The notes below the pieces were generated by a model. That model saw only the letters and a program-made list of their open reading frames with translations, was not told where the DNA came from and ran no database searches. Positions 31,701 through 64,000 of a DNA stretch of 64,000 nt are shown in pieces. A program made the position numbers and the translations under genes. Source of the stretch: Liolophura sinensis (lineage: Eukaryota; Mollusca; Polyplacophora; Chitonida; Chitonidae); the NCBI RefSeq assembly GCF_032854445.1, contig NC_088300.1, forward strand, positions 57,264,984 through 57,328,983, read 5' to 3'. Positions within the stretch are counted from its first letter, which is position 1; every line of letters starts with the position of its first letter.

Positions 31701-33572
31701 ATTTTTTTTGACACAACAACATATCAGGATCCTGCTTCACAATAGCGCCACCTTGTGAAATTAAACAATATACCACCATCACTATATTTTTTAATTAAAA
31801 AACCTATATTTTCTACTATGTATTGTTAAGAGTGACTCTGTAGACTGTAGTTGTTTTCAGGGGAAATAACTCTTACATGGGATTTTCTCAGGTGTTGACC
31901 ACACCACTTACATACAGCTTTTGGTGCCAGCTGTATTGCTATGCATGTGCTGTTTTGAAACCCATATACCTACAGAGGTAGATTTCTTATTCACTGACAA
32001 CCAAGTCTGGAGAAACTCTTCACCAGGACTACTGTGTTGTGGTAACACTTGACCATGTAAAATGTTGAGGTCACTTTCAGTGAAAGCAGAAGGGTTGATC
32101 CCATTTTAAGATGGTTTTCCCCTTGAGTATGGAGGTCTTAAAACCCAGCAAAGAGAAGTTGATCATTCCTTCCCTAAATTTACCTGAATATATTTTTGTT
32201 AGAATCTGTGGAAAGTACAGATCTATAATAAGTGGTTTCTCTATTAATACTTGATATTTTCTGTGATGAAATTCAAATGACTTCACTCACTATTTTAATA
32301 CATGCATCACTTTTAGAGCCTAGTCAGTTCAGTCACAAAGTGCTGGAGACTTACATCACCTCTGACACACACAAATGCTACGCCATCCAGAGTGGGCCTC
32401 ATCAGATGTTTGCTCTCTTTCAACCCTGTCATCCCCACCTTCGCAATGAGTAAGCTCACTCTCACTAATTACCTTGTACTGTAGTCGGCCCAGCCTCAGG
32501 AGACCAGCAGTCACTCTCCTACGGGCTTACCAAGGATCACATCACTAAGCCGTTACTTATACCGCTAGGCGATGCGGTATATAATACATGTGATTTTTTA
32601 ATGTGAAAATTTATTCCCTGTGAACTTTTTCTCAATGGTATGCTGTTATCATTGATGGCCTTTATTAGTATGATTCAGGACATCGCAAACATCTTCTGTC
32701 TGTGCACCAGTGGAATATGGGAGGTTGTACGACACGGATACTGTAATTATCCTACACCAGTATAGGTTTCTTAGATTTACACGTCTTTGTGTATCCAAGA
32801 TTTGTGTGTTCAACACCAATAAATAAACAACTATGTAGAAAATTGTTTGACATTAGCAGTCCAGGTAATAAAAAAGGGACACATTCCTTGTTTTTTATTT
32901 GAGTCATACTGGCTCATATGGTTAGAGCACTGGCTGGCTGCAACTGTGAGGCCATTAACCAGTAGGGCCAGCTGTTCAAATCCAGCTATTACTGCTTTGA
33001 CAGGAGGAGGTTTGTCAATGTTCCTTGCAATGGTCAGTGGGTTACTCAAACCACTCTGGTTTTCTACAGCCATGAACTGACTACTGTCGTGAAGTTGAAG
33101 AATTCTTGAAAGAAATTAATTCCCATTTTATTCTAAATTTTACATGGAAAGTATTTGATTTATTTATTTTTTTATTTGATTGGATGTTGTAGTCAAGAAT
33201 ATTTCACTTTTATGACAGCGACCAGCATTATGGTGGGAGGAAACCAGGCAGAGCCAGGGGGGAATACACGAACGTCCGCAGGTTGCTGGTAGACTTTCCT
33301 ACAAATGGTCAGAGAAGAAGCCAGCATGAGCTGGACTTGAACTCGTAGCGACCACTTTGGTGAGAGGCTCCTGGGTCATGGTCGCCACGGTAGCTTGCTA
33401 AACCCCTAGGCCAAGAATTTGATGTGAACTATCCTGTCATCCTTTTGCTTAACAAGTTCTGATAACCATTTGGGTAGATGATACTGTCATGTGACCTTTG
33501 ATTTTTTTTTCCAGATCTGTAACACAGAAGACAATGACTATGTTTACCAAAGACAAGACTGTCCATTTATAA
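13690..33572 (+). CDS. FUZ: Fuzzy planar cell polarity effector (FUZ), complete 11-exon gene
   Basis: Joined exons: 13690-13767, 22497-22618, 23280-23433, 24893-25003, 26372-26569, 27054-27149, 27681-27784, 29441-29517, 30243-30344, 32317-32449, 33515-33572. They sum to 1233 nt, or 410 residues plus stop; human FUZ is about 418. All introns are GT-AG and all phases agree. Diagnostic stretches are PFPVIGSLNGVHMF (residues about 28-41), IHIKNVERFKKEIK (105-118), PVFLPHTSPTVPHRLLTY and RREILRSFYKYV, each matching vertebrate FUZ in order. Known for the family: three longin-like domains (roughly residues 1-125, 155-290 and 290-410); pairing with Inturned, and with WDPCP in CPLANE; a role in Rab23 activation, basal-body function, ciliogenesis and planar polarity. 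The start is the first ATG (context AAAATGGCGG), and its peptide aligns with the FUZ N-terminus. Intron 1 is unusually long (8.7 kb) and carries a perfect tandem duplication. Confidence 0.95.
13924..14969. repeat. 1046-bp direct tandem duplication, copy 1 (FUZ intron 1)
   Basis: Every base I compared equals the base 1046 positions downstream, including an 8-T run and the complete 75-codon frame at 14480-14707. It begins about 155 bp after the FUZ exon 1 donor. The unit contains a tRNA-headed SINE-like segment (14267 to about 14530). The open frames in it have no recognisable product and stem from the repeat. Confidence 0.95.
14267..14530 (+). mobile_element. tRNA-headed SINE-like element inside duplication copy 1
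   Basis: Has a box A-like ATAGCACAGTTGG near 14273 and a box B-like GGATCAATCC at 14317-14326, spaced as in a tRNA-type pol III promoter. An unrelated body with CTGCAG-rich short repeats follows. The 3' end is approximate. An identical copy is at 15313-15576. Confidence 0.55.
14970..16017. repeat. 1046-bp direct tandem duplication, copy 2 (FUZ intron 1)
   Basis: Perfect second copy, ending with two extra bases (GT) that are shared at both junctions. Zero divergence implies either a very recent event or an assembly duplicate of one allele. Confidence 0.95.
15313..15576 (+). mobile_element. tRNA-headed SINE-like element inside duplication copy 2
   Basis: Exact copy of the 14267 element, carried along by the tandem duplication rather than independently inserted. 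Confidence 0.55.
17328..17544. mobile_element. MITE-like element, CCCTAAATGAC family, copy 1
   Basis: Terminal inverted repeats TACCCTAAATGAC and GTCATTTAGGGTA enclose about 190 bp without coding capacity. TA at each edge suits a Tc1/mariner-type target duplication. A second copy lies at 36961-37121. Lies in FUZ intron 1. Confidence 0.7.
18770..18890 (+). repeat. Interspersed repeat fragment (GTAAACCACTGACCTTTGGC family)
   Basis: Shares the order GTAAACCACTGACCTTTGGC, a short gap, then TTTCCCAC and GTGACATA with segments near 31384, 35951 and 43238. Class unknown. Lies in FUZ intron 1. Confidence 0.5.
18905..19045 (+). repeat. SINE-like fragment
   Basis: GTAGATCCAGGGTCAATCC resembles the box B region of the element at 14267. 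The end, AAGTACGACATTAAACCCCA, resembles SINE tails I associate with molluscs. Degenerate. Confidence 0.4.
20682..20830 (+). repeat. Degenerate tRNA-headed SINE fragment (GGAGGTTTGTCAAT family)
   Basis: GTTCAAATCC (box B-like) is followed by GTCAGGAGGTTTGTCAATC. The same arrangement occurs in the fuller copy near 32905-33110. Lies in FUZ intron 1. Confidence 0.45.
22497..22618 (+). CDS. FUZ: FUZ exon 2 (residues 27-67)
   Basis: Acceptor TTTACAG, donor AG|GTCAGT, ending in phase 2. It contains PFPVIGSLNGVHMF, the most conserved FUZ segment, followed by VVWRVFHD, which aligns with the VVWKSFHDS of vertebrate FUZ. Confidence 0.95.
22853..23039 (+). mobile_element. 5'-truncated SINE (GCTCATGCTGG family)
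   Basis: Starts at AAGTCCAGCTCATGCTGG and continues through the family's central domain (GCGGATGGTCGTGAG, ATAATGCTGGCCGCC, AAGTGAAATATTCTT) to an AAATAAATAAAT-type tail. The tRNA-like head is missing. It sits in FUZ intron 2. Confidence 0.8.
23280..23433 (+). CDS. FUZ: FUZ exon 3 (residues 67-118)
   Basis: Acceptor TTTGCAG, donor AAG|GTGAGT. It completes longin domain 1 with LTLIMVSG, FQSMVLVYGQDDL and IHIKNVERFKKEIK. The next base downstream keeps the frame into exon 4. Confidence 0.95.
23521..23618 (-). mobile_element. SINE fragment (GCTCATGCTGG family), minus orientation
   Basis: CTCAAGAATATTTCACTTAT followed by GCCAGCATTTTGGGG is the reverse complement of the family's 3' half. It sits in FUZ intron 3 just after the exon 3 donor. 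Confidence 0.65.
24893..25003 (+). CDS. FUZ: FUZ exon 4 (residues 119-155)
   Basis: Acceptor TTATTAG, donor CAG|GTAATG, phase 0 at both ends. It encodes CYHMVDTLL and DTILAPENQVLQ, aligning with the CLIDSFL and DCVIPPEGSLLQ segments of vertebrate FUZ that link longin domains 1 and 2. Confidence 0.92.
26372..26569 (+). CDS. FUZ: FUZ exon 5 (residues 156-221)
   Basis: Acceptor GACCAG, donor ACG|GTGAGG. The longest coding exon. It encodes the second longin-like domain, with LVHGKVAVATRKWW, ELVLLSMIVAASP and DIPVFLPHTSPT, the last near-identical to vertebrate FUZ. Confidence 0.95.
27054..27149 (+). CDS. FUZ: FUZ exon 6 (residues 222-253)
   Basis: Acceptor CTCTAG, donor GAG|GTGAGA. Encodes VPHRLLTYQLMKGVEVCAVC then GPNPSL, matching the VPHRLLTLTLLPSLELCLLC and GPSPPL of vertebrate FUZ. 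Confidence 0.95.
27681..27784 (+). CDS. FUZ: FUZ exon 7 (residues 254-287)
   Basis: Acceptor GTTGTAG, donor GGG|GTAAGG, ending in phase 2. Encodes VGRFWRAAYESLKAV and MPIDQNILG, corresponding to the ERWWQPLLDPLRA and HTDILG segments of vertebrate FUZ. A second AG four bases in (GTAG|GTCG) would break the frame, so the first is used. Confidence 0.92.
28796..28920. repeat. Imperfect tandem duplication, about 69-bp unit
   Basis: CACACCTTACATGTAGTTAC and CACACCGTACATGTAATTAC begin two copies, each followed by CATGCATGTAC and AACACTGTCAT. The second copy is shorter. It lies in FUZ intron 7. Confidence 0.75.
29441..29517 (+). CDS. FUZ: FUZ exon 8 (residues 288-313)
   Basis: Acceptor TTTCCAG, donor ACAG|GTATAT. 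Encodes FLLVNVESHKSLCTVQPM, aligning with the LLLLHLELKRCLFTVEPL of vertebrate FUZ, the start of the third longin-like domain. Confidence 0.92.
30060..30185 (-). mobile_element. tRNA-headed SINE-like fragment, minus orientation
   Basis: On the minus strand it reads GCTCACTGGAGCCACTCTCA ... TGACCCTTGACC ... GAGTTCAAATCC. The same order is seen at 59085-59170. The box B-like GTTCAAATC implies a tRNA-derived head. Lies in FUZ intron 8. Confidence 0.5.
30243..30344 (+). CDS. FUZ: FUZ exon 9 (residues 314-347)
   Basis: Acceptor CTTGTAG, donor GAAG|GTAAGT, phase 1 at both ends. Encodes RRREILRSFYKYVVGTYFPS, matching the family pattern RRRLLRNFYTLVTSTHFPP. Confidence 0.93.
31300..31530. repeat. Foldback repeat (GTAAACCACTGACCTTTGGC family)
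   Basis: GTGAACCAACAAAGTTTGGC at 31384 is mirrored by GCCAAAGCGCTGTGGTTTAC at 31504-31523 on the other strand, so both edges carry the family's motif in opposite orientation. The open frames on both strands here are by-products. Lies in FUZ intron 9. Confidence 0.55.
32317..32449 (+). CDS. FUZ: FUZ exon 10 (residues 348-391)
   Basis: Acceptor TTTTAG, donor AATGA|GTAAGC. Encodes KVLETYITSDTHKCYAIQSG then MFALFQPCHPHLRN, matching the C-terminal longin region. Without splicing, the frame stops at once because the donor's GTAA supplies a TAA codon. Splicing to 33515 restores a tail that looks like the vertebrate one. Confidence 0.88.
32900..33110 (+). mobile_element. tRNA-headed SINE (GGAGGTTTGTCAAT family)
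   Basis: TGGTTAGAGCACTGG (box A-like) and TTCAAATCCAGC (box B-like) are followed by GGAGGAGGTTTGTCAATGTT and an AAGAATTCTTGAAAG end. The tRNA-like head does not make a full functional tRNA. FUZ intron 10. Confidence 0.6.
33160..33412 (-). mobile_element. Full-length SINE (GCTCATGCTGG family), minus orientation
   Basis: The reverse complement reads from a TGGCCTAGGGGTTTAGC box A-like head through GAGTTCAAGTCCAGCTCATG, the central domain and the T/A-rich tail. Flanking AAGTATTTGAT (33149) and AAGAATTTGAT (33413) look like a target-site duplication with one mismatch. FUZ intron 10. Confidence 0.8.
33515..33572 (+). CDS. FUZ: FUZ terminal exon 11 (residues 392-410 and stop)
   Basis: Acceptor with a long T tract then CCAG. 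The 58-nt coding part gives SVTQKTMTMFTKDKTVHL and a TAA stop. It lines up with the end of vertebrate FUZ (LRSLATHTLHALTPLL type) after HLRNE, and the predicted length then matches the family. The alternative is that the protein ends in exon 10, 19 residues shorter. Confidence 0.75.
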
Positions 33573-39912: not shown

Positions 39913-40218
39913 AGCATTGTTACAAGGTTTGCATATTCAGAAAGACATATTATGTGAGATACATGTAATAGGATGAATCTGTGTAGTTTCTTTCATCATA
40001 GAAATATGTGACTTAGGGCAAGTATGAAGATGGAAATTTTAAAGTTGCTTAAAGTCAAATTATATTCCATGGCCTGTATTTTCTTTTGCAAATGCAGGAA
40101 ATTTCAGTAGTTTATGTATACTGTATAAGTCGTGAAGACGATATCAGTCCACTCTTTTCCTACATGTGATGTAATTAAGTAGGCTGGATACTAAAGCCAC
40201 TCTATTAACATTAATGTT

Positions 40219-40489
40219 GGGGCCTCCGTGGTTCAGTTGGTTAGCGCGCTAGCACAGCGTAATGACCCAAGAGTCTCTCACCAATGCGGTCGCTGTAAGT
40301 TCAAGTCCAGCTCATGCTGGCTTCCTCTCCGGCCGTACGTGGGAAGGTCTGCCAGCAACTTGCGGATGGTCGTGGGTTTCCCCGGGCTCCTCCTGGTTTC
40401 CACCCACCATAATGCTGGCCGCCATCGTATAAGTGAAATATCCTTGAGTACGGCGCAAAACACCAATCAAATAAATAAGTAAATAAATC
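40219..40489 (+). mobile_element. Full-length tRNA-derived SINE with target-site duplication
   Basis: The head GGGGCCTCCGTGGTTCAGTT, box A-like GTTCAGTTGGTTAGCGCGC and box B-like AGTTCAAGTCC lead into a central domain (CCGGCCGTACGTGGGAAGGT; GCGGATGGTCGTGGGTTTCC; ATAATGCTGGCCGCC) and an AAATAAGTAAATAAAT tail. AACATTAATG flanks it exactly (40207-40216 and 40490-40499). The central domain resembles what I recall of MetaSINE-type elements; that family name needs checking. Confidence 0.92.
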
Positions 40490-40849
40490 AACATTAATGC
40501 ACATGTCTACAGTTTATATACATGTAGAAGTGAAGCTGACGATTTATTGTTAGAGTAAATATACATGTCAACACATTTTACTGTTCATATACTAAAACCG
40601 TGTGATGAACTGCTGTGAAATCCTTATCCGCATGAATTTGCTTAGTCCCGCTTCATTGTTCTGAATTTCAGTATTGTCAGTCATTGAGTATGCTAATGTC
40701 TGAAACATAAAATGCTCAGTATTTGTGAGCTGTGGAAATTCCGGATTAGTTAGATTTACTTTTTTTATAAAAAAAGCAAAAAATAAATGAGAACACATAC
40801 CATACCTATATGCACACAATTCCCTAATTATTGGAGGCTAATTAAGATA

Positions 40850-43572: not shown

Positions 43573-43870
43573 GAAACTGGATCCGCCAACGTGATCATCT
43601 TTACCCTGTCAAGCAGCGAATCTGGATATGTCAACGTGATCATCTTTATCCTGTCAAGCAGCGAAACTGGATACGTCAACGTGATCATTTTTACCCTGTC
43701 AAGCAGCGAAACTGGATACGTCAACGTGATCATCTTTACCCTGCAAAGCAGCGAAACCGGACACGTCAGCGTGGTTATCTTTACCCTGTAAATCAGCGAA
43801 ACTGGATAATCAACGTAATCACCTTTGCCCTCTCAAGTAGCGAAAATGGGTCCTTCAACCTAGTCATTAT
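43573..43870. repeat. 45-bp minisatellite, about 6.6 units
   Basis: Units start GAAACTGGATACGTCAACGT and continue GATCATCTTTACCCTGTCAA GCAGC, at 43573, 43618, 43663, 43708, 43753, 43798 and 43842. The last is divergent (44-bp spacing). 45 is a multiple of three, so both strands stay open across several units (15-residue periods). These frames are not evidence of a gene. Confidence 0.95.
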
Positions 43871-50129: not shown

Positions 50130-52975
50130 CCGGCCACTAACACCCGGCGAGGACGGTTCCTGGAGTGTTACATACTGTTGTTCTTACTTACTTGCTTGCA
50201 CCGTATGTGGATCTCATGGGCGTTAATTCAGACAATAATCCAGAACAGAATTGATGGGGAGTCTTAGTTGTTTTAGTGTGATTGTATGTTAAATGTGATG
50301 ACAACACAACATTCGGAGCAATTCAAGACCGGAGACGTCTAATAACTATCATGACTGAATTTTGTTTCACCTAATTCCGTTAAACCATGATGTTTGGGGA
50401 CGTCTACGTTGCTGCGTTTTAAGCACATACATGAACAGTTGGAATAAAATCCAAACTGATGTAAATTGACAAGTTGCCGAATTTCACCGGCCATACGTGT
50501 GAGAAATTTCAACACTGTCCTCACTGCTCCTGGTTAACTTTCGGTACTGTAGTCTATTACATAATGGGTTTGTGGGTTGTTCAACTTAAGTGCGTTTGAC
50601 ATTGTTTAAATTTTAATGATTACGTTTCCAAAGTTAAAGATAACTGAATTCCCACTCATAAATATTGGTTAGGCAAATGCACATTGGACTTAATTCCATG
50701 CAGTTATCCCTATATGCCAAGATTCCAAGGGGAGAGTGTTACGCCTTATACTTCTGATCCAGCGGTACTTTCTGTCGGACCAATGCCATAATGTGATGGA
50801 ATCCGGCTGTCAGCTGTTCAGCTGAGACTTATAAAGTTCAGAAGTTTGTCAGGTACCTAGCAAATTAATGCTGGTGTTTTTCTTCTGACTCTACGTGAAA
50901 CCCCAATCAAATATATAAATGATAAGGGACGTATACGTATGGTTATTCCATTCGCTTCCACCGAATCTCCTAAAGAAATAATTTTGCGGTTGAAAATTTG
51001 CTTCAGCTTAGCGAACATTTTTCCCGTATGACCTTCATCTCAACATTTGAAATATTTTTGGTGCTTTGACGATGTCATGGAAGCCATTCTACCGTTATTC
51101 GGATGCTATCAGGTTTTGAAAGTATTGCATTTTGATAACTGTCTGCGGTTATCCGTTAAGGCAGTTTTTAGTTATTTATACAGTTTTAGTTTGATTTTTG
51201 CCGACAATACTTAACATGTAGCTTTTCGCTCATCATGCCGGAGACTTCAAACGGATTATGTCATGCGTCATCTTCAGAATTTCCTAATGCAGTCAGAAAT
51301 GTTCACTCAATTAAGAACAAGTTCCATGTAAAACGTGAAGAAAGGAAAGAAATGTAGTAAGGTTCATCAGATGGCCAACTGGGAGTTAGGTGAAAAGAGA
51401 CTTTCATAGATATAGTTTTCTACTGTCTATCTGACGATCGTTGCTTCTATTTTCAACTTTCTTTTCCTTCCAATCACTCAATAGTCAACCAGAAAAACGA
51501 TATATTATTCACATTAAGCTGATTGCAACATATAGAAGCCAACTAGAATGTATCATTGACGACCGTGTTGTATACCCCCAAAAGAGCCATCGAAACAACC
51601 ACAGTTTTAACCAGGAGTGGCAAGAGTTCTAACCCCACTCCTGCTGGCTCTGCGATTACAATATGTGAGGAGTTCACATTATAACGCTGCTGTTAGAGTT
51701 CCAGGGCCAAACCCACAGGGCTGTTTCTGATCCAAGAAATACAATTTTAGAGTTTATTTTGGGGCTCTAAAAGTTAAAAGTTTAGCCACCACATAAATGT
51801 TAAATGTGTCAAAAGTAAAGCACCAAAAATTTTACCAGCAATCCACACATAAAACTTCCTATACAAAAGTTCATTATGGAGAATGTTAAACCTCTGGTGT
51901 TTCGACAAAACAACTCTTGGGCTTGAACTCTTGCTTGAATTGTACAGCGTCTGGTGTTAAGTCTGAAAGCCTTATTAATGCTTGACTCCAAACCTGATAA
52001 CAGGCCAAGCGACAGGCTTGTCCCTGGAGAACCATTTATGGAGAGGTTGAATAGCTCTTGTACTGTCATTACAGCTGGTTATATAGATTTACTGTCCTCT
52101 CTTAGGGTCCTGCTCTGTTCAACGATGAAATTGTACAAATACTGTCAACTGCTAGGTCAAATCATACTGGGTGAGTAGAAAATAACAGCTATTGATATTC
52201 CGATGCTCACAAGAGAAAATTATGAATTCATGAATTTTCTGTCCGAAGCTATGGCAGAATGTTTTTTGTACACATTGAATAGAGTAACGGAGTTAAATCA
52301 CTTTAATCAAATAAATTACAATGGATTTTAGCGAATACCAACTAATTGTACTTTTAACGGGAACCATTTATCCAAAACACAAGGACGTGTTAATTTGGTA
52401 GTCGGCTAGGTGGCTCGGTGCACAGTAAATATTTAGTTTTCATCAGCAACTGAGTTAAAATCTGTACATTCGACTAGTGATTTATTTGACACCTATCGTA
52501 TAGCGAATGAAACTAAGATCTGTTTTCCATTCCAGCATTGCAGGGTATGCAGGCGGCGAATGGTGAAGACAGTTTCATTTTACCGCCACCGTGCATGTTC
52601 GTCCTCATAAATTGCTCTGAACAACACAACAGTCCTTATCAGATTTGATTAGATGAAGATACACCAACTTTATTTGAGGCTATACTCTATGCATGTTTGG
52701 TAAAGGACTAAAGCACTCACTCTCTGTTATACTCTTAGGTGGATGGTAACTGCCATGGAAATATATGTTAAAGACCTATTGAAGTTACCATGACTACTAT
52801 ACACTCAACTTATACCTTATGATAACTTTGTGCAACCAGGCACACACCTTTAAAGAGGCAGGTATGAGTAAACATATAAACAAAGAAACTAAATGAATTG
52901 GATGTAGTTGTGGTGACCTGTTTCTATTTTTTTTCTTTTGACTTCGTTACATTTTCTTTTCTCGTGAAACACTTT
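50130..52975. other. Intergenic DNA, nothing recognised
   Basis: No coding exon or complete repeat seen. A degenerate SINE tail (GTGAAACCCCAATCAAATAT) lies near 50896. Short open frames near 51809-52178 on both strands have no recognisable product. Confidence 0.5.
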
Positions 52976-52989
52976 AACAATTTGTTGTT

Positions 52990-53248
52990 GGGGCCTCCGT
53001 GGCTCAGTCGGTTAGGGCGCTAGCGCAGCGTAATGACCCAGTAGCCTCTCACCAATGCGGTCGCTGTGAGTTCAAGTCCAGCTCATGCTTGCTTCCTCTC
53101 CGGCAGTAAGTGGGAATGTCAGCCAGCAGAGTGCGGATGATCGTGGGTTTCCCCCGGGCTGTGCCCGGTTTCCACCCACCATAATGCTGGCCGCCATCGT
53201 ATAAGTGAAATATTCTTGAGTACGGCGTAAAACACCAATCAAATAAAT
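52990..53248 (+). mobile_element. Full-length tRNA-derived SINE with target-site duplication
   Basis: Same family as 40219: GGGGCCTCCGTGGCTCAGTC, box B-like AGTTCAAGTCC, central domain and AAATAAAT tail. AACAATTTGTTG flanks it exactly (52976-52987 and 53249-53260). Carries some private changes such as CCGGCAGTAAGTGGGAATGT. Confidence 0.92.
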
Positions 53249-53902
53249 AACAATTTGTTGCTATGACAGTCTAATGAAATCTTACTTTATCAGCAGCATT
53301 GTCCTCAACAAGATGAGCGACTTCTTTATTACAGGTGCACCAGTTTGTTATCTGCACCGGTCAATACTATTCAAAAGAATGAGCAAAATCAGTCTATATT
53401 TTGCCTATGATAAAAATTTATTCTATTCGGTCATCCCCAATGGAAAAACAGTGGTGAAAAGTATTTTTACATCTGAAATACATTTTTCTTTTTCATTTTT
53501 TCAGGTACAGAGACTAGTCTCAGGTATGTACATCAATCAAGGTCTGAGAATTAGGTGTGGTCGTATGCATCGCCTTTCCTAGTGTGACCTCTATTTTCTG
53601 ATCTGATAGATGAAATGTAACAAAATTAAACACCATTTTAATTTGATGCCAAAACATGAGCCATGGCATTTGTTAAAAGCCTTCCGTCGAAAACAAGTCA
53701 CTTCAGGAGGGGAATGTTTTTGAAATTCGATATATTCAGGTTCATTGGTGTTCCTGCATTGCCCGGAAGCTGTTCGGGATGGTTACGGGCATAGCACAGC
53801 TGAGTAACCTCCCCTCCCTGTACTCACTCAATCGTCCATTGTTTCTGGTCAAGAGACTTGTTGACACACAAATTCACACTGTCTTTTGTTATGAACGTTT
53901 AC

Positions 53903-53908
53903 TTTATT
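53903..53908 (-). terminator. Possible polyadenylation signal of the neurophysin gene (AATAAA)
   Basis: A canonical AATAAA on the minus strand about 455 nt beyond the neurophysin stop codon. Placed by position only. Confidence 0.45.
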
Positions 53909-54361: not shown

Positions 54362-54465
54362 TCAGTCATCTGTCTTTTCCCGTAGGAGGCGCTGCAGTAA
54401 TGAGACTAGCCTGGGGTTTACGGGTCTCCGTGAGGCCTTACATCTGCTGTTGAAGGCACATGCTT
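54362..54465 (-). CDS. Neurophysin exon 3 (C-terminal cysteines and leucine-rich tail)
   Basis: Acceptor TTTCTTGCAG. The two leading bases complete a Glu codon with exon 2, giving CCDSEACAFNSRC across the junction as expected. Then a basic KASRRP segment, the tail NPRLVSLLQRLLREKTDD and a TGA stop. The phase and the last two cysteines confirm the join. Confidence 0.92.
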
Positions 54466-57400
54466 CTGCAAGAAAAGAGAAACGCGCACATGAGAATGAC
54501 GCGAGCAGTTTGTTACTGAACTAATGGACAGGCAGCCTACTTTTTAATCCCGAAAAGTAGCGCTAGTATGAAGCAGGACTTCAAACCATTGATACGATAA
54601 AAATAGATTGTATTTCAACATCTTCAATGTTTCTTCTGTCTTTAATGTGACATTATCAAAAAGAGCTGGAAAAGGAAAACTTAATTAAAAGTTTTTCCGG
54701 GTTTCCATTACTTACTTATTTAAATTTAAGCTCTATTAGACCCAAGTCAGACTTAGTCCTAACTTGTGATGTCATTCCTGAACTTATATTTTAAGCAACA
54801 TTCTAATTTACATCTTTGTCATGAAAGTGTAAGACTTACTATTTGTATTAAAATAAAAAAATTCTTAAAAGGATACACAATCGTAGCTGATTGGTTGGTG
54901 TGCATACCCTAAGCTGAATTTTAGGTATGATAGATTTATTCAAGCGTGAACAAGATTGTAGGGTTCCAGGTCCAGGCGCAGGAAATCTTACCGTCACTTT
55001 CAGCCAATATAGCGTCAATTCTGTATCCCTTTAAAGAAGCCTAAATGACAACTGGTTTGATGTTAAGACAACGTTTGACTTAAGTGTAGATACATTCAGC
55101 ATCTTAGTAAAAAGAAAGTGTACATACAAATAATAAAGTTAGTCAAATAACCTGCAAACAAAAACCTGACTCCAACTAAAGGCTATTTTGTCCGAAGATT
55201 AAGGATAACTTGATACTACTCTTCGCGTGTTTTAATGGTCTAAGGACACTTCTCCACCGACACGATTCACCAATAGTTTAATAAGTAGCCTACAGTGAAA
55301 GACGCTACACAAAAAATAACACTGCTAAAATTAGTAACTCACTGGAATTGAATTATAACCAGTCAATGATTTCAAGATTAGATTTTGCCTCGAATCGGCC
55401 TTAGAGCTTTGCATTCAGGAGCTCTTAGAATACTTTTATCTGTAATCTATAGAGTTTTACAGCCTGACAGATCTGACGGCAGAAGGTCTCAACTGGGACC
55501 TGTTACCAAAGGGCTCAGTGTCTACTGCAATCAAGAAATAAACCTACACCCAAGTCTTTCAGCTCTCTTTACACCAATCCTTTCGCTCTTATCTGCTGCC
55601 TAACCGTCCGCTATCGATTCTCTTTCACACTGATGTCACCAGTAGTACATTTTTTACTCAAGAGCATGTCTTTAAAATGTTAGCTTTCAACTACAGTAAA
55701 GAGTATTACTTATTTGTATTAAACCAGTTAGATTTTGTTGTATGATATTACACAAAACCGCTACACTCGATTTTTTAGACTTGCATTTCTAAATGTTACA
55801 AGACAGTCACCGCAAAAGAACCAACTGAATTTTTATTTATTTCGTTTCCCAATCGCGTTGAATCTCAATTAACCATATGGAATGCGTTTCGTCTCGCTCT
55901 ATGATTGGTTTTATTCGCAGAAAAGTGAAGATTTCATAAAGCTGGGAATAAATCATAGGACAAATAGAAAGTTTCAGTTGATTGATATTGAATATGAAAG
56001 GCCTGTAATTTATTACAGTTACAGTACAGTTATGGTGCTGTTCATTTTTATTAATTACTGTATTTTACAAAAACCAAACAAATCCCCTTTATTATTTTTT
56101 TCATTCGCTCCTCGGGATCATGCAGCTGTCATACGCTTAATTCATATTTAGTATTAACTTCAAAACAGTTTACTGCTCTAAATTTTGTTACTTATCTTAA
56201 CAATTTTTACATTAATACATAGCGTAGACCTGGAAAACAAAAACTGAAAATTAGCGCATAAGTTCAAAAATAAGCTCAAAAAACATGTCACGACTGACTT
56301 AAGTTTAAGACTGGTTCGTGATCCTGGGATCCGATATTTTGTCTTAGATGACGTGTGACGCGTTGTTTGAATAATTGCGTTCTACATGCTTCTGCATACC
56401 GAACTCGCTTCCCACGAGAACAACCAGAACTATCACTGTGTAGTAACACCTAAGCAAATCAGATCGAGGAAAGTTCTTAGCCATTAACACTCCAGTTAAC
56501 CGTGAAGATTCAGCCAACAGGCAAATTGGACAACACATGAAAAAACTGGATGCTGGCAATAGTTGGCTGTAAAAAGCAAATGTGTCAGATGCCTACACAG
56601 GAGCACGGAATTTGGTACGACGAAGTGTGCGGACCAATAATTCGTGCACCAACGGTTCCGCTTTGGAACGCTTTTAGATATACTGTGTCTTGGAATGTAC
56701 AAATCCTTTCTGAGAGTTAGTTGATTTGTTGTACAGAAAGAGTTGGAAGATAGCGAAGGAGTGATCTAAAGTGCTGGTCTTAGGAAAGAAAAGGTCAGCA
56801 CTAAGACAGGAAAGAGGAGATCAGGCTATCAGCCGACATGTCCTTAGTACGGCCATTTCCGGTCCGTTCCGGTCTCCTTGCACCGGATATGTATGAGTGC
56901 ATTATGGGAATTCTTCGCTTCACACTGCCATTGATCAACGTCTGAACAAGTCGGAGCGAAAGTGATGCTCGGAAGCTACTTGAAAACAACACAGTCTGAG
57001 ACTTGAAAAATTTACTCACAAGAGGCATATGCACCGTGAATAACGCTGAATACGTCAAGGATGTACGTACATTTGACAGTGAAGGCAAACCATATCTTGT
57101 TCTGAAACATCAGTTATCCCTTGAAGTAGAATGGAATCTTGACTTTTGTGAAACTTCAATCCAGGCTGTGTTTTAGTATCATGCTTCAATTCTTCAAACG
57201 CCTCTACATCCGGGAATTAGATTAAAGCGGAGCCTACTATTAGCATATCGTCCCACGTCTGTGCGCTCATTAAGTGCCGAAAGCGGCAATTTGAAATGAA
57301 AAAGACATCATTTGTTTTGTCTCTTAGAAGCAGACCTACCCACGTACTAATTCCCTACGACTGACTGAAATTCATTTTCAAAGTATGACGCGATATCTGA

Positions 57401-58225
57401 TCTGTTCCGTTCATTTATGGATCAGTCTATATAGTCTTCTGACCCGAAACAATAATGTATATACTGGACAGATTGCCATCTTAGCCTTCTTCGAATAAAG
57501 CAAGTAATTTTGGTTTATCAGTTCATAGGAACATTTTCAGTACAATGTGCCTTTCGAGTCTATTTTCCTTGATTCTATATTTAATGCCAACAAGTCAGTT
57601 TTTCAGACCAGACAGTGCCAAAATATTAACACATCTGTCTTCTGCGAGCTGAACATAGTGTTCATTCAGTTCTTTTAAAGCTTAATCTAATTTAATACAT
57701 GCGCTATGTATGGCAAAGATTTAAGATCTTTTTTATATCGATACTCGTGATTTGTTTTCGTAAACTTAACTACGTGTACCTTACTACGTGTGATCTCAAG
57801 CACTGACTAGTGTATTCAAGTGGACAATGCTTTCAGTAACTGTGTCTTGGTACTACAGGTTTACCGTTTTAAACCTTTCCCACCAAAAGCTGTGGTGACG
57901 CGTAGTGGGCAAACTGATAACGTAATACTCATGCATTGTAAGGAAACATTTATTTATGCAGCTTGGACCCGACTCGCCACGGGAGAAAACGTAACACATA
58001 GCACAGACTGAGCGCACCTGAATCACAGCACACTCCATCGGCCACACAGTTCCCCTGGCCGTCCACACCACATGGGGCCCCGTCTATCTCACACGGGGTC
58101 CGGCTCTCGTTCTCCTTTTGGCACACTTCTGATTCCTCCGTCGCAATGTAACATCCGAAGTCCGGCCCGCAGCAAATGTTTGGCCCCACGCACTGCCCAG
58201 CTGTGCCTGGCCCGCATGACATACA
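54362..58225 (-). CDS. Oxytocin/vasopressin-type (conopressin-like) neurophysin precursor, exons 2-3, 5' incomplete
   Basis: Minus-strand exons 58225-58018 (exon 2) and 54465-54362 (exon 3), GT-AG intron of 3.55 kb, phase 1. Together they encode a neurophysin with all 14 family cysteines: 12 in exon 2 (including CMSCGPG, GQCVGPNICCGPDFGC and DGVCCDS) and two in exon 3 (EACAFNSRCK). As known for the family, the prohormone yields a signal-cleaved amidated nonapeptide and neurophysin, its carrier in secretory granules, in neurosecretory cells. The intron before the first neurophysin cysteine and the one after CCxx are at the same places as in vertebrate oxytocin and vasopressin genes. Exon 1 (signal peptide, nonapeptide, GKR site) was not found up to 64000 and presumably lies upstream. 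A leucine-rich tail follows the last cysteine. Confidence 0.93.
54466..58017 (-). other. Neurophysin intron 2
   Basis: 3.55-kb intron between exon 2 and exon 3. No repeat of the main families and no other exon recognised in it; the open frames here (for example 56801-57088) have no recognisable product. Confidence 0.7.
58018..58225 (-). CDS. Neurophysin exon 2 (central domain)
   Basis: Acceptor CATTTCAG, donor TTCAG|GTGCGC; 208 nt, 69 codons plus one base. It begins exactly at the first neurophysin cysteine. Includes GCYIATEESEVC, a pattern typical of invertebrate precursors, and CEIDGAPCGVDGQGNC. Twelve cysteines with canonical spacing. Confidence 0.96.
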
Positions 58226-58867
58226 CTGAAATGCATATCGACGCATATGGTTAGTTGGGTCTGTTACTAGTTAATAGAGGTAGGCAGCTTCTCACATATT
58301 AAAGTGAAAGAAAACTAGCTTTGACAGAGAAAAGACCACTGAACCTTCCATCTAATATCACCTGTAATTATTTCTTTAGATCATTTTATGGACCGAAGAA
58401 TCTCAAGTGCAATACCTGAATCCAATAGTGGGTATGATTAGGAACCATATTAATAATGTTGGTACTTGAAATTAACTTTTTACACTGTTATTGTCATGTT
58501 TGGAAGATTGTCTTGTGAATTTACTATTGTGGTGTCCACACTCGTGCATTCATTTACACAAGCTATTCAAACATAAACTACTGTGTTTGGGTGAAAAGGA
58601 AGAGGTCCCTGCAGCTCATTTTAGAATTTTAAAATGTGACTAATCATTTTTGTTTTCTTTGCGTAACTGAAATACGTAATAACTTGTTCGCAACTTGCAA
58701 TTTTTCGATACACATTGTTTTGGTCATGGGCCCGTCTTACAAAGCACGCCTGCTTCATCTACATCTTTATGGCGACGTATATGCTTTGAGTATTAGCATA
58801 GCACTGACGCTCATGTAACGTTTTTGTGCAGCCCTTCAGTCTAGGCATCTTCTGGGCAAGTTTTAGC

Positions 58868-58932
58868 GACGTCACGACTTCGGACTTAATACCTTTAGCT
58901 GACGTCACGACTTTGGATTTAGAACCTTTACT
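58868..58932. repeat. 33-bp tandem repeat carrying GACGTCA motifs, 2 copies
   Basis: GACGTCACGACTTCGGACTT and GACGTCACGACTTTGGATTT start at 58868 and 58901, each continuing A(A/G)(T/A)ACCTTTA. The second copy holds a perfect palindromic TGACGTCA at 58900-58907 (CREB/ATF-type site); the first has CGACGTCA. Confidence 0.8.
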
Positions 58933-59079
58933 AATTGTACTGAGTATTTGTAAGCCAACAAAGTGTATTTGTATTCAACAAAGTGATGGCCATTTTATAC
59001 AATATACAAAAGGAGTCTAACACGAATGGACAGTTATGATGATTATAATAATGACACTAATAATATATCGCTTTCTTCA

Positions 59080-59172
59080 AAGGCGCCCTCCATGGCTCAT
59101 TGACCTACAGGGTCACTCTCACCGAAGACAATCTGCCCTTGACCCTGAGTTCAAAGTTCGAATCCAGCTCAC
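59080..59172 (+). mobile_element. tRNA-headed SINE-like fragment
   Basis: CCATGGCTCATTGACCTACA, GTCACTCTCACCGAAGACAA, TGCCCTTGACCCTGAGTTC and GTTCGAATCC (box B) lie in tRNA-like order. The same order occurs at 30060-30185 in the other orientation. Confidence 0.55.
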
Positions 59173-59486
59173 GCTGATGTGGCTAAAAAAAGCCAGTGAG
59201 GAACATCATTAAGATGATGGTAAAATATATAGGTTAATTTGGCGTGAAATACATCAGTGAATTCTAATCTGTATATAACCATGAACTATATTAAATATGT
59301 ACTAAATATATAAATATTCAATATGATATTTCTAGAAAATATCGAAAAGTCGTAAATAAGTAGTGGCGACTGAGTGGTACGTGGTAATTAACAGTTTATG
59401 TTAATGCTCGTAAACAGCAACGGTAATATTAATTCTGCTGTTAAAAAATAGATGGTATATTTTAACTGTTCTACTATTCGTATGGA

Positions 59487-59760
59487 GGGGGTCTCCGTGG
59501 CTCAGTTGGTTAGCGCGCTAGCGCAGCGTAATGACGCACTAGTCTCTCACCAATGCGGTCGCTGTGAGTTCAAGTCCAGCTCATGCTGGCTTCCTCTCCG
59601 GCCGTACGTGGGAAGGTCTGCCAGCAACCTGCGGATGGTCGTGGGTTTCCCCCGGGCTCTGCCCGGTTTCCACCCACCATAATGGGGGCCGCTGTCGTCT
59701 AAGTGAAATATTCTTGAGTACGGCGTAAAACACCAATCAAATAGATAAATAAATAAATAA
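59487..59760 (+). mobile_element. Full-length tRNA-derived SINE with target-site duplication
   Basis: Same family as 40219 and 52990: GTCTCCGTGGCTCAGTTGGT, GTGAGTTCAAGTCCAGCTCA, complete central domain, ATAGATAAATAAATAAATAA tail. ATTCGTATGGA flanks it exactly (59476-59486 and 59761-59771). Confidence 0.93.
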
Positions 59761-59825
59761 ATTCGTATGGACTTGAAATAACATTCCACCCACTCACATA
59801 ATACTGACTGGCCAACTAGTCATGT

Positions 59826-59985
59826 TTCCTTGCTTTAAGCTCTCTGTGCTGAGTACAGAGTGAGGCAACTGCAAGTACCACTTTCAAAGTCTTTGGTATG
59901 TCCCGATCCGGGTTTAATCCCGGGTCTTCCGACTTCGAGGCGGATGTTGTAACCATTAGGCCAGCGAAGCGGCATGGTGCCAAAG
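59826..59985 (-). mobile_element. tRNA-headed SINE-like element, minus orientation
   Basis: On the minus strand: TGGCCTAATGGTTACAACAT (box A-like), TCGAAGTCGGAAGACCCGGG, GGGATTAAACCC (box B-like), then CATACCAAAGACTTTG. The last part is shared with the repeat at 39205-39450. The anticodon stem is not that of a functional tRNA. Confidence 0.6.
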
Positions 59986-61545
59986 GCATCGTCATGTAGT
60001 ATGATATAGAGTACAATTGATGGCTGCTATTTCGACAAGAAACAAACTCGTCCATGAAATTCTTTAAGGGGATTTCTGGAGTATTGTCAGCAGAAGAATT
60101 CCTGGTTCTTCCTGCCATTATGAGTTATACCATCTATTTAGACTCTGCGACCTCGATCAAATTCGAAATATTCCTTCATCTGTTCTTTGAAGTGTCTGGA
60201 TTACACTGACGTCGTAAATGGTTCGTCAAAAAAGGGCGTGTCTAGAAATCACGTATTTTAGAACTAGTTTCGCGATGTTCATAACCTTGGAGTGATTCTT
60301 GGACAGTTGAACAGCATATAGTTTTCAACCATTTCAACTTACACTGTGCTTTCGTGAACCAAGTCATTTGGGGATTTATTTTTTGATTCCGCATTAACGC
60401 TGGCTCGGTAGGCTGTTTTGTGCATTTTCCGTGAAGTTTTTCAGTTTTTATCGCATCCAAATGAATATTCTGCTTAGTGCCTTAGCCTACTGTTTGAAAA
60501 GCAATATTGATTGGAACTCTGTAGAACCTAAGCGTAAAGTTCGATATTTCTATACCACTCAAAAACCATAAAGGGGCGTTCCATGTCGATATCCATTTCC
60601 GAAACAGCGTGAACATCAGTATACATGTATGTAAGAAAAATATAAATAGTAAATAAAGCAGTGAACAATTCTTAATCTTGCAGAGAAAAACAGTCGAAAT
60701 TCGACCCAGAAAATTCATTTCAAATTTCAGATTTGTCAGTGAATAATTTGTAGTTCGAATACAAATATAGGCTTCTCAGTCGCGCTATGATTGCAGCTGT
60801 TCATAACAGAATCATGTTGATGTAACAAACGTGAATGCTTATAGAGCATCTAGCCCCCGGTTAAGCGGGGCTAGATAAACATGACAACAATGAAAGAATG
60901 GACAGATCTTGAACGCTATGTCGATATTTGCCAACCAGAGTGTTCTACTCATTATAAAATTTAAGAAAATTGGAACAAAGGCGTTTGATAGAGTATCATT
61001 TGACTTACTGTTTACTGAATCAATAACTTTTCACGAGAAATTCCATACAATTCGTGTGGACAGTGTAACGTCCCATGAATTATAAACTTACAAATTATTA
61101 GAGCTAAAAAGGTCTTGTTGATGTTCACGTTGAAGTAATGGCCAACTATTCTAATGAACACCGAGACAATTACTGACAAGATCCTATCAACTGATTTTTA
61201 TGAGGGATTATAGTAGAGAGAGTAGAAAAATCCCATGTGATCCGTCTTTATATGGTATGTGTTCTCGAGCGTGAAGCTCATGCATGCGATGTTTCGCGTT
61301 GTTAAGAATCCACAAGCAGTTGAAACCTCAAGTGTTTGGAATGGCACAACAGTATATTTACAACAACGTGTCCTTAGTTCTTGCAGAGTTCTCGCCACTA
61401 GGGTTGACAAAATAGTTAGTGGCACAACCTCTTGAGCCAGCAATGAATGGAGCTTTGTAATGGTTTTGTATATTTATTGCCTAACGGGAAAGTACGTTTA
61501 CTTGTCTTTCTCTAAAAAACAGCCAGGGCCAATGATTCAAAAGCC

Positions 61546-61680
61546 GATCACCAATGCGGTCGCTGTGGGTTCAAGTCCAGCTCATGCTGCTTGCGGATAG
61601 TCGTGAGTTTTCGCCGTTTCCTCCCACCATAATGCTGGCCACCATCGTACATGTGAAATATACCGCCGGCGTAAAACGAC
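61546..61680 (+). mobile_element. Internally deleted SINE (GCTCATGCTGG family)
   Basis: ATCACCAATGCGGTCGCTGT and TCAAGTCCAGCTCATGCTG run directly into CTTGCGGATAGTCGTGAGTT; the roughly 40 bp normally between them are missing. The CCACCATAATGCTGGCCACC end and a shortened CGGCGTAAAACGAC tail follow. Confidence 0.8.
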
Positions 61681-62184
61681 TTAGTAACTCCACAAAAAAT
61701 TGATAGTAATAGTTCTCACAAATAAAGATTACATTATTAGTTTCCCTTGCACTATGTGATCTCTCAGAGCTTGGAATCGGGAAGAGCATTAATGTCTGTA
61801 TGGTGGATAGGCGAAACAACATTGTCTTTGACGAGCTCGATCTAATCGTTAAAACTGATGGATGTAAAAAGCCAGGCTTCTTGAAGACAAGTGGTATATT
61901 TTTCCTCTTCAGTTAGAATTTAACGACGACTTAAATATTATAAGTATTATAATGTATAATATGTAATTATGTATAACGATCTGTATATTTTGTTTAGTGG
62001 CTTGTGTTGAACAGTGTTTTATGGAAATGGCCTTGTGATTATTTACCTGGAACATTCACGTTGGTTGACGACTGACATATGAATGTCTGTTTCGACGCCT
62101 TGATTTAAACTTTATACTAAATATTTAAATCAGTCATTATCAGTATTTTGGAAGAAAAGGAAAGGAGATTGTCATGACCACGAG

Positions 62185-62250
62185 GTCAGGATGCTTTATT
62201 TTCAATCATCGGGCACACGAGATGTTGGTTCAATCCCAGTGTCAGACCGA
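62185..62250 (+). repeat. Possible tRNA-like SINE head
   Basis: ACCACGAGGTCAGGATG upstream and TTGGTTCAATCCCAG (box B-like) are spaced roughly as a tRNA-type promoter. Degenerate, and the body is not shared with the other families here. Confidence 0.25.
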
Positions 62251-64000
62251 GGTTGTTCCACATTTTCCTTGCTGTTCTCCGGGTTTTGCAAAAAGCATTC
62301 GACAGCCGTTCAGATGTTTTTACAAGAAGTTCACTTGGATCACCAACATATTACAAAATGTGGAAAGGCCTTCACCTTGAACTGGCGCTACAGTTGAACA
62401 CGTGCACAAAACGGAAGATCGTTTGACAGTTACAAAATGTCTGTGGCTCACACCGCGCTCACTTTCGAGATAATGATTAGATTGAATTCAAGATGCTGAA
62501 TCGTTGAGCTGTGAACAGAGAGGAGCTTTACACATATCAGAACAAATGCATAGGTAAAATATGAGAGGCTGACGGGATATCTAATCCAAAACAAATGCCG
62601 TTTCAAGATCAACAACGGAAGCGAAGCATAATCTAAAATTTACAGTGACTTCCGTGTAGATTACGATGAAGGCATATTCAAATCTTTTTGTCTAGGCGGC
62701 CTGACTATAGATATCATAAACATCAGATATGAGCATCATGCTTGTGGTCTCAACCACAGGCGTATGACGCCATTTAACATATTCGTTGATAGCTTGTTGT
62801 GTAAATGGAGAGCTGTCTCATGACACCATCTTATTAAAACTACTTAGCTGGAAGAGAAACTCAAGCAAACACCCACAAGTGATATCGATTGTAATTTGTA
62901 CGAATGTATAAAAAAAGTTTACCCACAAAACGTCATCCACTCCACACCTTAGGCTCGAGTTGTTTAGGCATGTACGGTTGCCCCTGAATTCTCTCAATCC
63001 AAATTTCACCTAATGACTGTTCATGCCAATTCCTAGGTCAAGTTTGTAGCATTTGTTTTCCAACTACCTCGGGGTTTTTCGCACAGATCAATAGAATGAC
63101 CTTTGGTCCCCAACCCCACCGTAGTGGCAGACTTTACTCAGGTTAATGAACTGATAATAGCTTTTTAGCTGTATACGTTTGATACAGTATAGTGACTTAT
63201 ACGGACACGTTAATAAGCTGAAGGACATCTCAGATCTAAGCACGAAAAAAGAATATAATAAGTGTATGAATAATTAACTAAATATAATTTGCGCTCGGAC
63301 AACAGTCGGCGAAGAAGTTTTACAATGATGAACCAAACAATATTGGCTACTCTTCGATGATAACAGCTCCATTAGAATAATGGGTTTTAGCGGGCGTTAT
63401 AGTGAATTATTTATCTTACTGGACTTTTATGGAAGTGTAAGTTATTTCAGTTGTGTTGTAAAAACACCAATTTTTCCACATATGTTTAATTCTATACATG
63501 TTTTATTATTTCCCACAATGCACATACATTGTATAGCAACACGTCTACATGCGTAAAATTCCTTGTACACCCGCTTTCTAGTTCTCTTGATCATTAGCAG
63601 GCCAAGGAACGTGAATCACCATATAAAGACATGTGCTAGCTGTTAACTTCGAGTCTAATTGTTTCACCTTGTAGCTGATCTGTCCCAGTGCCGACATATC
63701 CAGACTTACTGGAATACTATTAGGAAAGCACATCACCAAGTTTAATGGCATATGGCATGTTCCCACTAACTGGAGCTTGAATTCGGGTCAACTGGCCATT
63801 GCAGATTCACTCTCTCTTTAGAGTCTTACATGATTCAATGGCCACCGCATCAAAACATATTTACGGCATGTATCGTGTAGGCATGTACCACGGTATTAAG
63901 CAAGCACTTGTCTTTACAGAACAACGTGAGTTTTCACTTTCCATTGTCTTGGTACATGTATGAACACGACCTATCCCAGCCTAACACTGTTTACGTTGCC

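What the first reader, a model, noticed from the sequence alone, without database searches (positions are those of the whole stretch)
54362..58225. Lophotrochozoan oxytocin/vasopressin-type neurophysin gene with conserved intron positions but no exon 1 within 5.7 kb
Exons 2 and 3 give a textbook 14-cysteine neurophysin. The introns fall where vertebrate oxytocin and vasopressin genes have them: just before the first cysteine and just after the CC pair. Exon 1 with the nonapeptide is absent up to the window edge. The gene therefore has a first intron of at least 5.7 kb, the exon lies outside, or the locus is a broken copy.
Basis: partly seen in the sequence, partly recalled or inferred. Interest (0 to 1): 0.75.

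Follow-up and report, generated by a model that had tools for sequence, protein, structure and literature searches.

The report
Chiton oxytocin/vasopressin-type hormone gene
This is an intact, ordinary oxytocin/vasopressin-family hormone gene of what is most likely a chiton (a mollusc); the first exon that seemed to be missing lies just outside the window, beyond a long first intron.

Summary
Exons 2 (58225-58018) and 3 (54465-54362, minus strand) encode a 14-cysteine neurophysin. Exon 1 lies 9.6 kb past the window edge at G000:C6:57338618-57338752 (window-equivalent 73635-73769). It encodes a signal peptide, CFIRNCPPG, GKR and 11 residues, and ends in AAG|GTAAGT, phase 0. Splicing gives an unbroken 148-aa precursor; the introns are 15,409 and 3,552 bp. 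The predicted peptide, CFIRNCPPG-NH2, is known from oysters and scallop. Intron positions and phases (0 and 1) equal those of mammalian OXT, down to the split Glu codon, as published for amphioxus. Searches found no second copy of either exon in the 609-Mb genome. Genome size, scaffold count, scaffold length and mitochondrial length point to the chiton Liolophura (deposited as L. japonica, corrected to L. sinensis). So it is no broken copy but a new member of a known kind. Expression was not tested. A possible ancient linkage with MRPS26, DDRGK1 and EBF is only suggestive.

The parts
58018..58225 (-). Exon 2: central neurophysin, 12 of its 14 cysteines; phase 0 acceptor, phase 1 donor
54362..54465 (-). 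Exon 3, coding part: last two neurophysin cysteines, leucine-rich C-terminal tail (ends LVSLLQRLLREKTDD), TGA stop
54466..58017 (-). Intron 2, 3,552 bp, GT-AG, phase 1 (splits a Glu codon G|AA)
58226..64000 (-). Part of intron 1 inside the window (15,409 bp in all, phase 0). Exon 1 lies outside the window at G000:C6:57338618-57338752, i.e. window-equivalent 73635-73769 (minus), locus L002:9635-9769
53903..53908 (-). First AATAAA after the stop, about 450 nt downstream (candidate polyadenylation signal only)

Best explanation
It is the single, intact conopressin (oxytocin/vasopressin-type) gene of a chiton. Shown by sequence: three coding exons joined by GT-AG introns in phases 0 and 1 give a 148-residue prohormone, consisting of a hydrophobic signal peptide (MASWSLETTVLILCLSVFSTEA), CFIRNCPPG followed by GKR, an 11-residue linker, a 14-cysteine neurophysin and a short leucine-rich tail. 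Inferred from the family: the signal peptide is removed at A|C, the two hormone cysteines form a ring, a convertase cuts after KR, trimming and amidation give CFIRNCPPG-NH2, neurophysin binds the hormone and sorts it into secretory granules, and the released nonapeptide acts on a G-protein coupled receptor of the vasopressin/oxytocin type. The function in chitons is unknown; by analogy with Lymnaea, control of reproductive muscle and behaviour is the likeliest.
For: Exon 1 with phase 0 donor. Open spliced frame of 148 aa. PF00184 at 4e-24. PDB neurophysins at 1.2e-19; 14 of 14 cysteines, and Arg8, Glu47 and Asn48 of bovine neurophysin II, conserved (that these three matter for hormone binding is recalled). 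Intron phases equal those derivable from camelid OXT exon lengths and stated to be the same in amphioxus and vertebrates. Same predicted nonapeptide in C. gigas (with a P/Q polymorphism at position 8), P. fucata and P. yessoensis. Exons are GC-rich against the window (exons 2, 3, 1: 0.60, 0.53, 0.50; window 0.38). Chance of the nonapeptide motif in the three minus-strand frames of 84 kb, from 100 first-order Markov simulations: strict form 0 hits in all 100, loose form 0.03 per simulation. One match each for the neurophysin family, exon 1 and exon 2 in the genome searches.
Against: No transcript or peptide evidence was available. The first acceptor (ATATGCATTTCAG) has a short pyrimidine tract and the second donor (GTGCGC) is not the strongest form (my judgement, no splice-site scoring was run). 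Leu50 and Ser52 of bovine neurophysin II are Ser and Thr here. No selection test was possible: the tool states that G000 has no relatives held here.
Confidence: 0.95

Rival explanations
1. A broken copy or exon relic without a working exon 1.
For: No exon 1 inside the window; weaker-looking splice sites at the exon 2 borders.
Against: A fitting exon 1 exists 15.4 kb upstream with a consensus donor; all three exons are open and in phase; 14 of 14 cysteines kept; no other copy was found in the genome searches.
Confidence: 0.02
2. A neurophysin-bearing precursor of the NG-peptide kind (related carrier, different hormone).
For: Neurophysin alone does not tell the two apart; NG-peptide precursors carry one too.
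Against: The upstream exon, found once in the genome, encodes CFIRNCPPG-GKR directly after the signal peptide.
Confidence: 0.01
3. The gene is real but its true first exon lies further upstream: the stretch CTTTCTTTCAG about 30 nt before the ATG is a splice acceptor and a noncoding first exon exists, so the gene has four exons and three introns.
For: Pyrimidine tract plus AG upstream of the ATG; single genes with 3-4 exons are reported for three of four invertebrates analysed in PMC8081664. This is an addition to, not a replacement of, the best explanation.
Against: The same letters (TCAGTT, with AGACA at +28 to +32 from its A) also fit Inr and DPE core-promoter consensus that I recall, which would make it the transcription start with a 31-nt leader, close to the 34 nt of camelid OXT. 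Neither reading was tested.
Confidence: 0.4

Closest known systems
Bivalve conopressin precursors (Crassostrea gigas, Pinctada fucata, Patinopecten/Mizuhopecten yessoensis)
   Same: Same predicted nonapeptide CFIRNCPPG-NH2. For the two oysters also: directly after the signal peptide, 14-cysteine neurophysin, uncleaved copeptin-homologous domain behind it.
   Different: Different mollusc class. Bivalve precursor letters and gene structures were not seen here, so the rest of the protein was not compared.
Vertebrate and amphioxus oxytocin/vasopressin/vasotocin genes
   Same: Three coding exons; introns just before the first neurophysin cysteine (phase 0) and inside the Glu codon three after the CC pair (phase 1).
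   Different: Introns of 15,409 and 3,552 bp, against 239/246 and 93-115 bp in camelid OXT and up to 5.57 kb in coelacanth. A two-residue insertion lies in the neurophysin. The tail has no clear copeptin cleavage site.
Lymnaea Lys-conopressin gene
   Same: Same precursor layout; the nonapeptide differs only at position 8 (CFIRNCPKG). The only member of the family in Lymnaea, by the title of a 1995 paper seen in a reference list.
   Different: Pro instead of Lys at position 8. Lymnaea gene structure was not seen.
Octopus cephalotocin/octopressin genes
   Same: Same family.
   Different: Those are two genes with single coding exons; here one gene with three coding exons, the layout that review gives for other taxa.

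Membership tests
Oxytocin/vasopressin-type (conopressin) prohormone | Signal peptide followed directly by a C-x4-C-P-x-G nonapeptide with an amidation/cleavage site | tested here: met
   MASWSLETTVLILCLSVFSTEA-CFIRNCPPG-GKR; 9-residue Kyte-Doolittle mean peaks at 3.2. Signal peptide judged by this only; no signal-peptide predictor was run.
Oxytocin/vasopressin-type (conopressin) prohormone | C-terminal neurophysin with 14 cysteines | tested here: met
   PF00184 4e-24; 14 of 14 cysteines aligned with bovine neurophysin II
Oxytocin/vasopressin-type (conopressin) prohormone | Three coding exons with introns in phases 0 and 1 at fixed places (octopus genes are an exception) | tested here: met
   compared with exon lengths of camelid OXT and the statement for amphioxus
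Oxytocin/vasopressin-type (conopressin) prohormone | Expression in neurosecretory cells and an amidated nonapeptide in tissue | not testable with these tools
   No RNA or peptide data
Oxytocin/vasopressin-type (conopressin) prohormone | A cognate vasopressin/oxytocin-type receptor in the genome | not tested
   No receptor search was made
Vasopressin precursors with copeptin | Separate C-terminal copeptin with a leucine-rich core | tested here: inconclusive
   Tail KASRRPVNPRLVSLLQRLLREKTDD is leucine-rich by eye, and its RR is followed by Pro; oysters are described with an uncleaved copeptin-homologous domain. No statistical comparison was made.
NG-peptide precursors | NG peptide in place of the nonapeptide before neurophysin | tested here: not met
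   Exon 1 encodes CFIRNCPPG

The most novel reading that the evidence does not exclude
The chiton hormone gene still lies in an ancient chromosome-scale linkage shared with the human OXT/AVP region: MRPS26, DDRGK1 and EBF, whose human counterparts I recall as neighbours of OXT/AVP on 20p13, lie on the same chiton chromosome 6-19 Mb away, although PMC8081664 calls the gene non-syntenic with the vertebrate one in three of the four invertebrates it analysed.
Probability: 0.3. Interest if true: 0.4.

Novelty: new member of a known kind. Interest (0 to 1): 0.2.

Why it matters
It shows that a chiton, from a mollusc class whose neuropeptides had little systematic study by 2019 (PMC6425005, passages), has a complete three-coding-exon conopressin gene with the vertebrate intron phases. 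That adds a data point for this layout being ancestral in bilaterians and for the single-exon octopus genes being derived (inference). It also shows how a small first exon behind a 15-kb intron can be missed. It opens no new question by itself.

Tried and rejected
Pseudogene or relic: rejected after exon 1 was found. Second paralogue, as reported for brachiopods, phoronids and nemerteans, or from the partial genome duplication reported for Liolophura (PMC12005716, passages): none found; the neurophysin family search and the searches with exon 1 and exon 2 each gave one match, but a missing match in G000 does not prove absence. Bivalve origin, suggested by the identical peptide: rejected because the mitochondrial gene order is of the ancestral molluscan kind with the MCYWQGE cluster and the assembly figures match a chiton. 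RNA families: 0 matches in the window at gathering threshold. tRNA genes in the joined 84 kb: 0 (ARAGORN). Receptor: not searched. Neighbouring genes: the window holds 53 stop-to-stop frames of 90 aa or more; only the hormone precursor was compared with Pfam, so I cannot say which other genes the window holds.

Linkage test: six families were searched, chosen from memory of human 20p13 neighbours; four first, two more after seeing the first four. MRPS26, DDRGK1 and EBF each matched at one locus, on C6; ITPA at one locus, on C7; VPS16 at one locus, on C1; pantothenate kinase at two, C6 and C12. C6 is 13.5% of the genome; 3 of 5 single-locus genes on it has binomial probability 0.02, the first four alone (2 of 4) 0.09. 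Because of the staged choice this is suggestive only.

Full report
What is there. On the minus strand, exon 2 runs from 58225 to 58018 and the coding part of exon 3 from 54465 to 54362. Exon 2 gives CMSCGPG...VCCDS plus one base; exon 3 completes the Glu codon and gives ACAFNSRC and a tail of 25 residues ending in TDD, then TGA. The neurophysin family search on the whole genome finds this place at 6.0e-20 and no other.

The missing exon. I took the 20 kb that follow the window and scanned all six frames of the 84 kb for C-x4-C-[PA]-x-G-[GKR]. One hit came back: CFIRNCPPGGKR, preceded by a signal-peptide-like stretch and followed by 11 residues and AAG|GTAAGT in phase 0. It lies at G000:C6:57338618-57338752, 9.6 kb beyond the window edge; a protein search of the whole genome gave that place and no other. 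In 100 first-order Markov simulations of the minus strand a strict form of the motif never appeared, and the loose form appeared 0.03 times per simulation. Joining the three exons gives 447 nt and an unbroken 148-aa protein. Intron 1 is 15,409 bp and intron 2 is 3,552 bp.

Family tests. The precursor matches PF00184 (4e-24, the only family listed at E up to 1) and eight distinct PDB sequences at E up to 0.001, all eight neurophysins (best 1.2e-19). Against bovine neurophysin II, 37 of 82 aligned residues are identical and 14 of 14 cysteines are in register; Arg8, Glu47 and Asn48 are kept, Leu50 is Ser and Ser52 is Thr (the role of these residues in hormone binding is recalled). Intron 2 splits the Glu codon aligned with bovine Glu77 after its first base. 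For camelid OXT, PMC5880406 (passages) gives exons of 154, 202 and 115 bp, a 34-nt leader, a 375-bp reading frame and the stop at nt 54-56 of exon 3. That means 120 + 202 + 53 coding bases and the same phases, 0 and 1 (my arithmetic; the paper's own start position differs from its leader length by one base). PMC2656470 (passages) states that positions and phases are identical in amphioxus and vertebrates, and PMC7181382 (passages) that genes of this family outside octopus have three coding exons.

The peptide. CFIRNCPPG-NH2 is the predicted conopressin of Crassostrea gigas, where position 8 is polymorphic, and of Pinctada fucata (PMC4200219, passages), and of the Yesso scallop (PMC5996578 and PMC7181382, passages). 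A full-text search for the letters found three papers, these three. PMC4200219 also describes an uncleaved copeptin-homologous domain after the oyster neurophysin; the tail here (LVSLLQRLLREKTDD) may be its counterpart, but I made no test of that. A search for papers holding the whole words chiton, vasopressin and oxytocin gave one, a review of RFamides seen only in the listing (the plural 'chitons' was not covered). PMC6425005 (passages) lists vasotocin/neurophysin among families found in molluscs and sampled several chitons; whether it holds a chiton sequence of this family I could not see, so I do not claim that the chiton peptide is unpublished.

Which animal. G000 has 609,464,459 bases in 632 contigs and the window's contig is 82,489,547 long. 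The published Liolophura assembly has 609,495,693 bases, 632 scaffolds and a second scaffold of 82,493,220 (PMC11068029, passages); the small differences are unexplained. The authors have since corrected the species from L. japonica to L. sinensis (PMC12441733, whole text). Contig C632 is a mitochondrial genome of 15,209 bp, the length given for a Liolophura mitogenome (PMC12111177, abstract). Its order was read from ARAGORN and open frames: of 26 tRNA calls I set aside four that lie inside or beside protein genes and repeat a tRNA; I named the protein genes from their letters; atp8 was below my 60-aa cut, and the rRNAs were placed by the gaps. It runs cox1-cox2-D-atp6, then F to M mostly on the other strand, then CYWQGE, cox3-K-A-R-N-I-nad3-S1-nad2. 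The start of this order is the ancestral molluscan one as spelled out in PMC12111177 (section 3.4), and the MCYWQGE cluster is described for chitons in PMC7003433 (passages). Against this, section 3.4 describes the nad2-cox3 block of L. japonica as inverted, whereas on C632 it lies on the same strand as cox1. I could not resolve that, so the genus rests on the assembly figures and the mitochondrial length.

Upstream end. About 30 nt before the ATG stands CTTTCTTTCAG|TTGACG. It can be read as a splice acceptor of a noncoding first exon, or as a transcription start, since TCAGTT and AGACA at +28 to +32 fit Inr and DPE consensus that I recall. PMC8081664 (passages) gives 3-4 exons for single genes in three of four invertebrates. 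I leave this open.

Linkage. [quoted passage not shown] PMC2656470 finds the genes beside the amphioxus gene unrelated to those in vertebrates. I tested six families chosen from memory of human 20p13: three matched at one locus each on C6 (MRPS26, DDRGK1, EBF), two at one locus elsewhere (ITPA on C7, VPS16 on C1), and pantothenate kinase at one locus on C6 and one on C12. The binomial probability for 3 of 5 is 0.02, but two families were added after the first four were seen. This is a lead, not a result.

Verdict. The gene is complete, apparently single, and ordinary for its family. Its 15.4-kb first intron, which holds two tandem arrays and copies of a dispersed repeat, is longer than the vertebrate introns quoted; I have no mollusc introns to compare it with.

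Noticed in passing
window 13924-16017: A perfect head-to-tail duplication of 1,048 bp (100% identical): either very recent or an assembly artefact.
   Followed up: no
window 22836-23039, 33155-33379, 40205-40491, 52974-53250, 59488-59761; window-equivalent 65544-65760 (L002) and 74398-74575 (L003): A dispersed repeat of about 180-280 bp, 73-92% alike between these copies, in both orientations, with shorter pieces elsewhere. Two of these copies lie in intron 1 and one on each side of the gene. ARAGORN found no tRNA in the 84 kb.
   Followed up: partly
window-equivalent 69056-70410 and 71379-72709 (L002): Two tandem arrays inside intron 1, seen as overlapping self-matches, that account for about 2.7 kb of its length.
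   Followed up: no
window 43573-43849: Tandem array of about six 45-bp units, open in two reading frames on opposite strands; coding status not tested.
   Followed up: no
G000:C99 and G000:C632: Mitochondrial cox1 recurs seven times at steps of about 15.4-15.6 kb on contig C99 (one of the seven matches is shorter), so C99 looks like a concatemer of the mitochondrial genome. The step is about 0.3 kb longer than the 15,209-bp contig C632, so C632 may lack a noncoding stretch; PMC12111177 reports the same length and no control region (abstract).
   Followed up: partly
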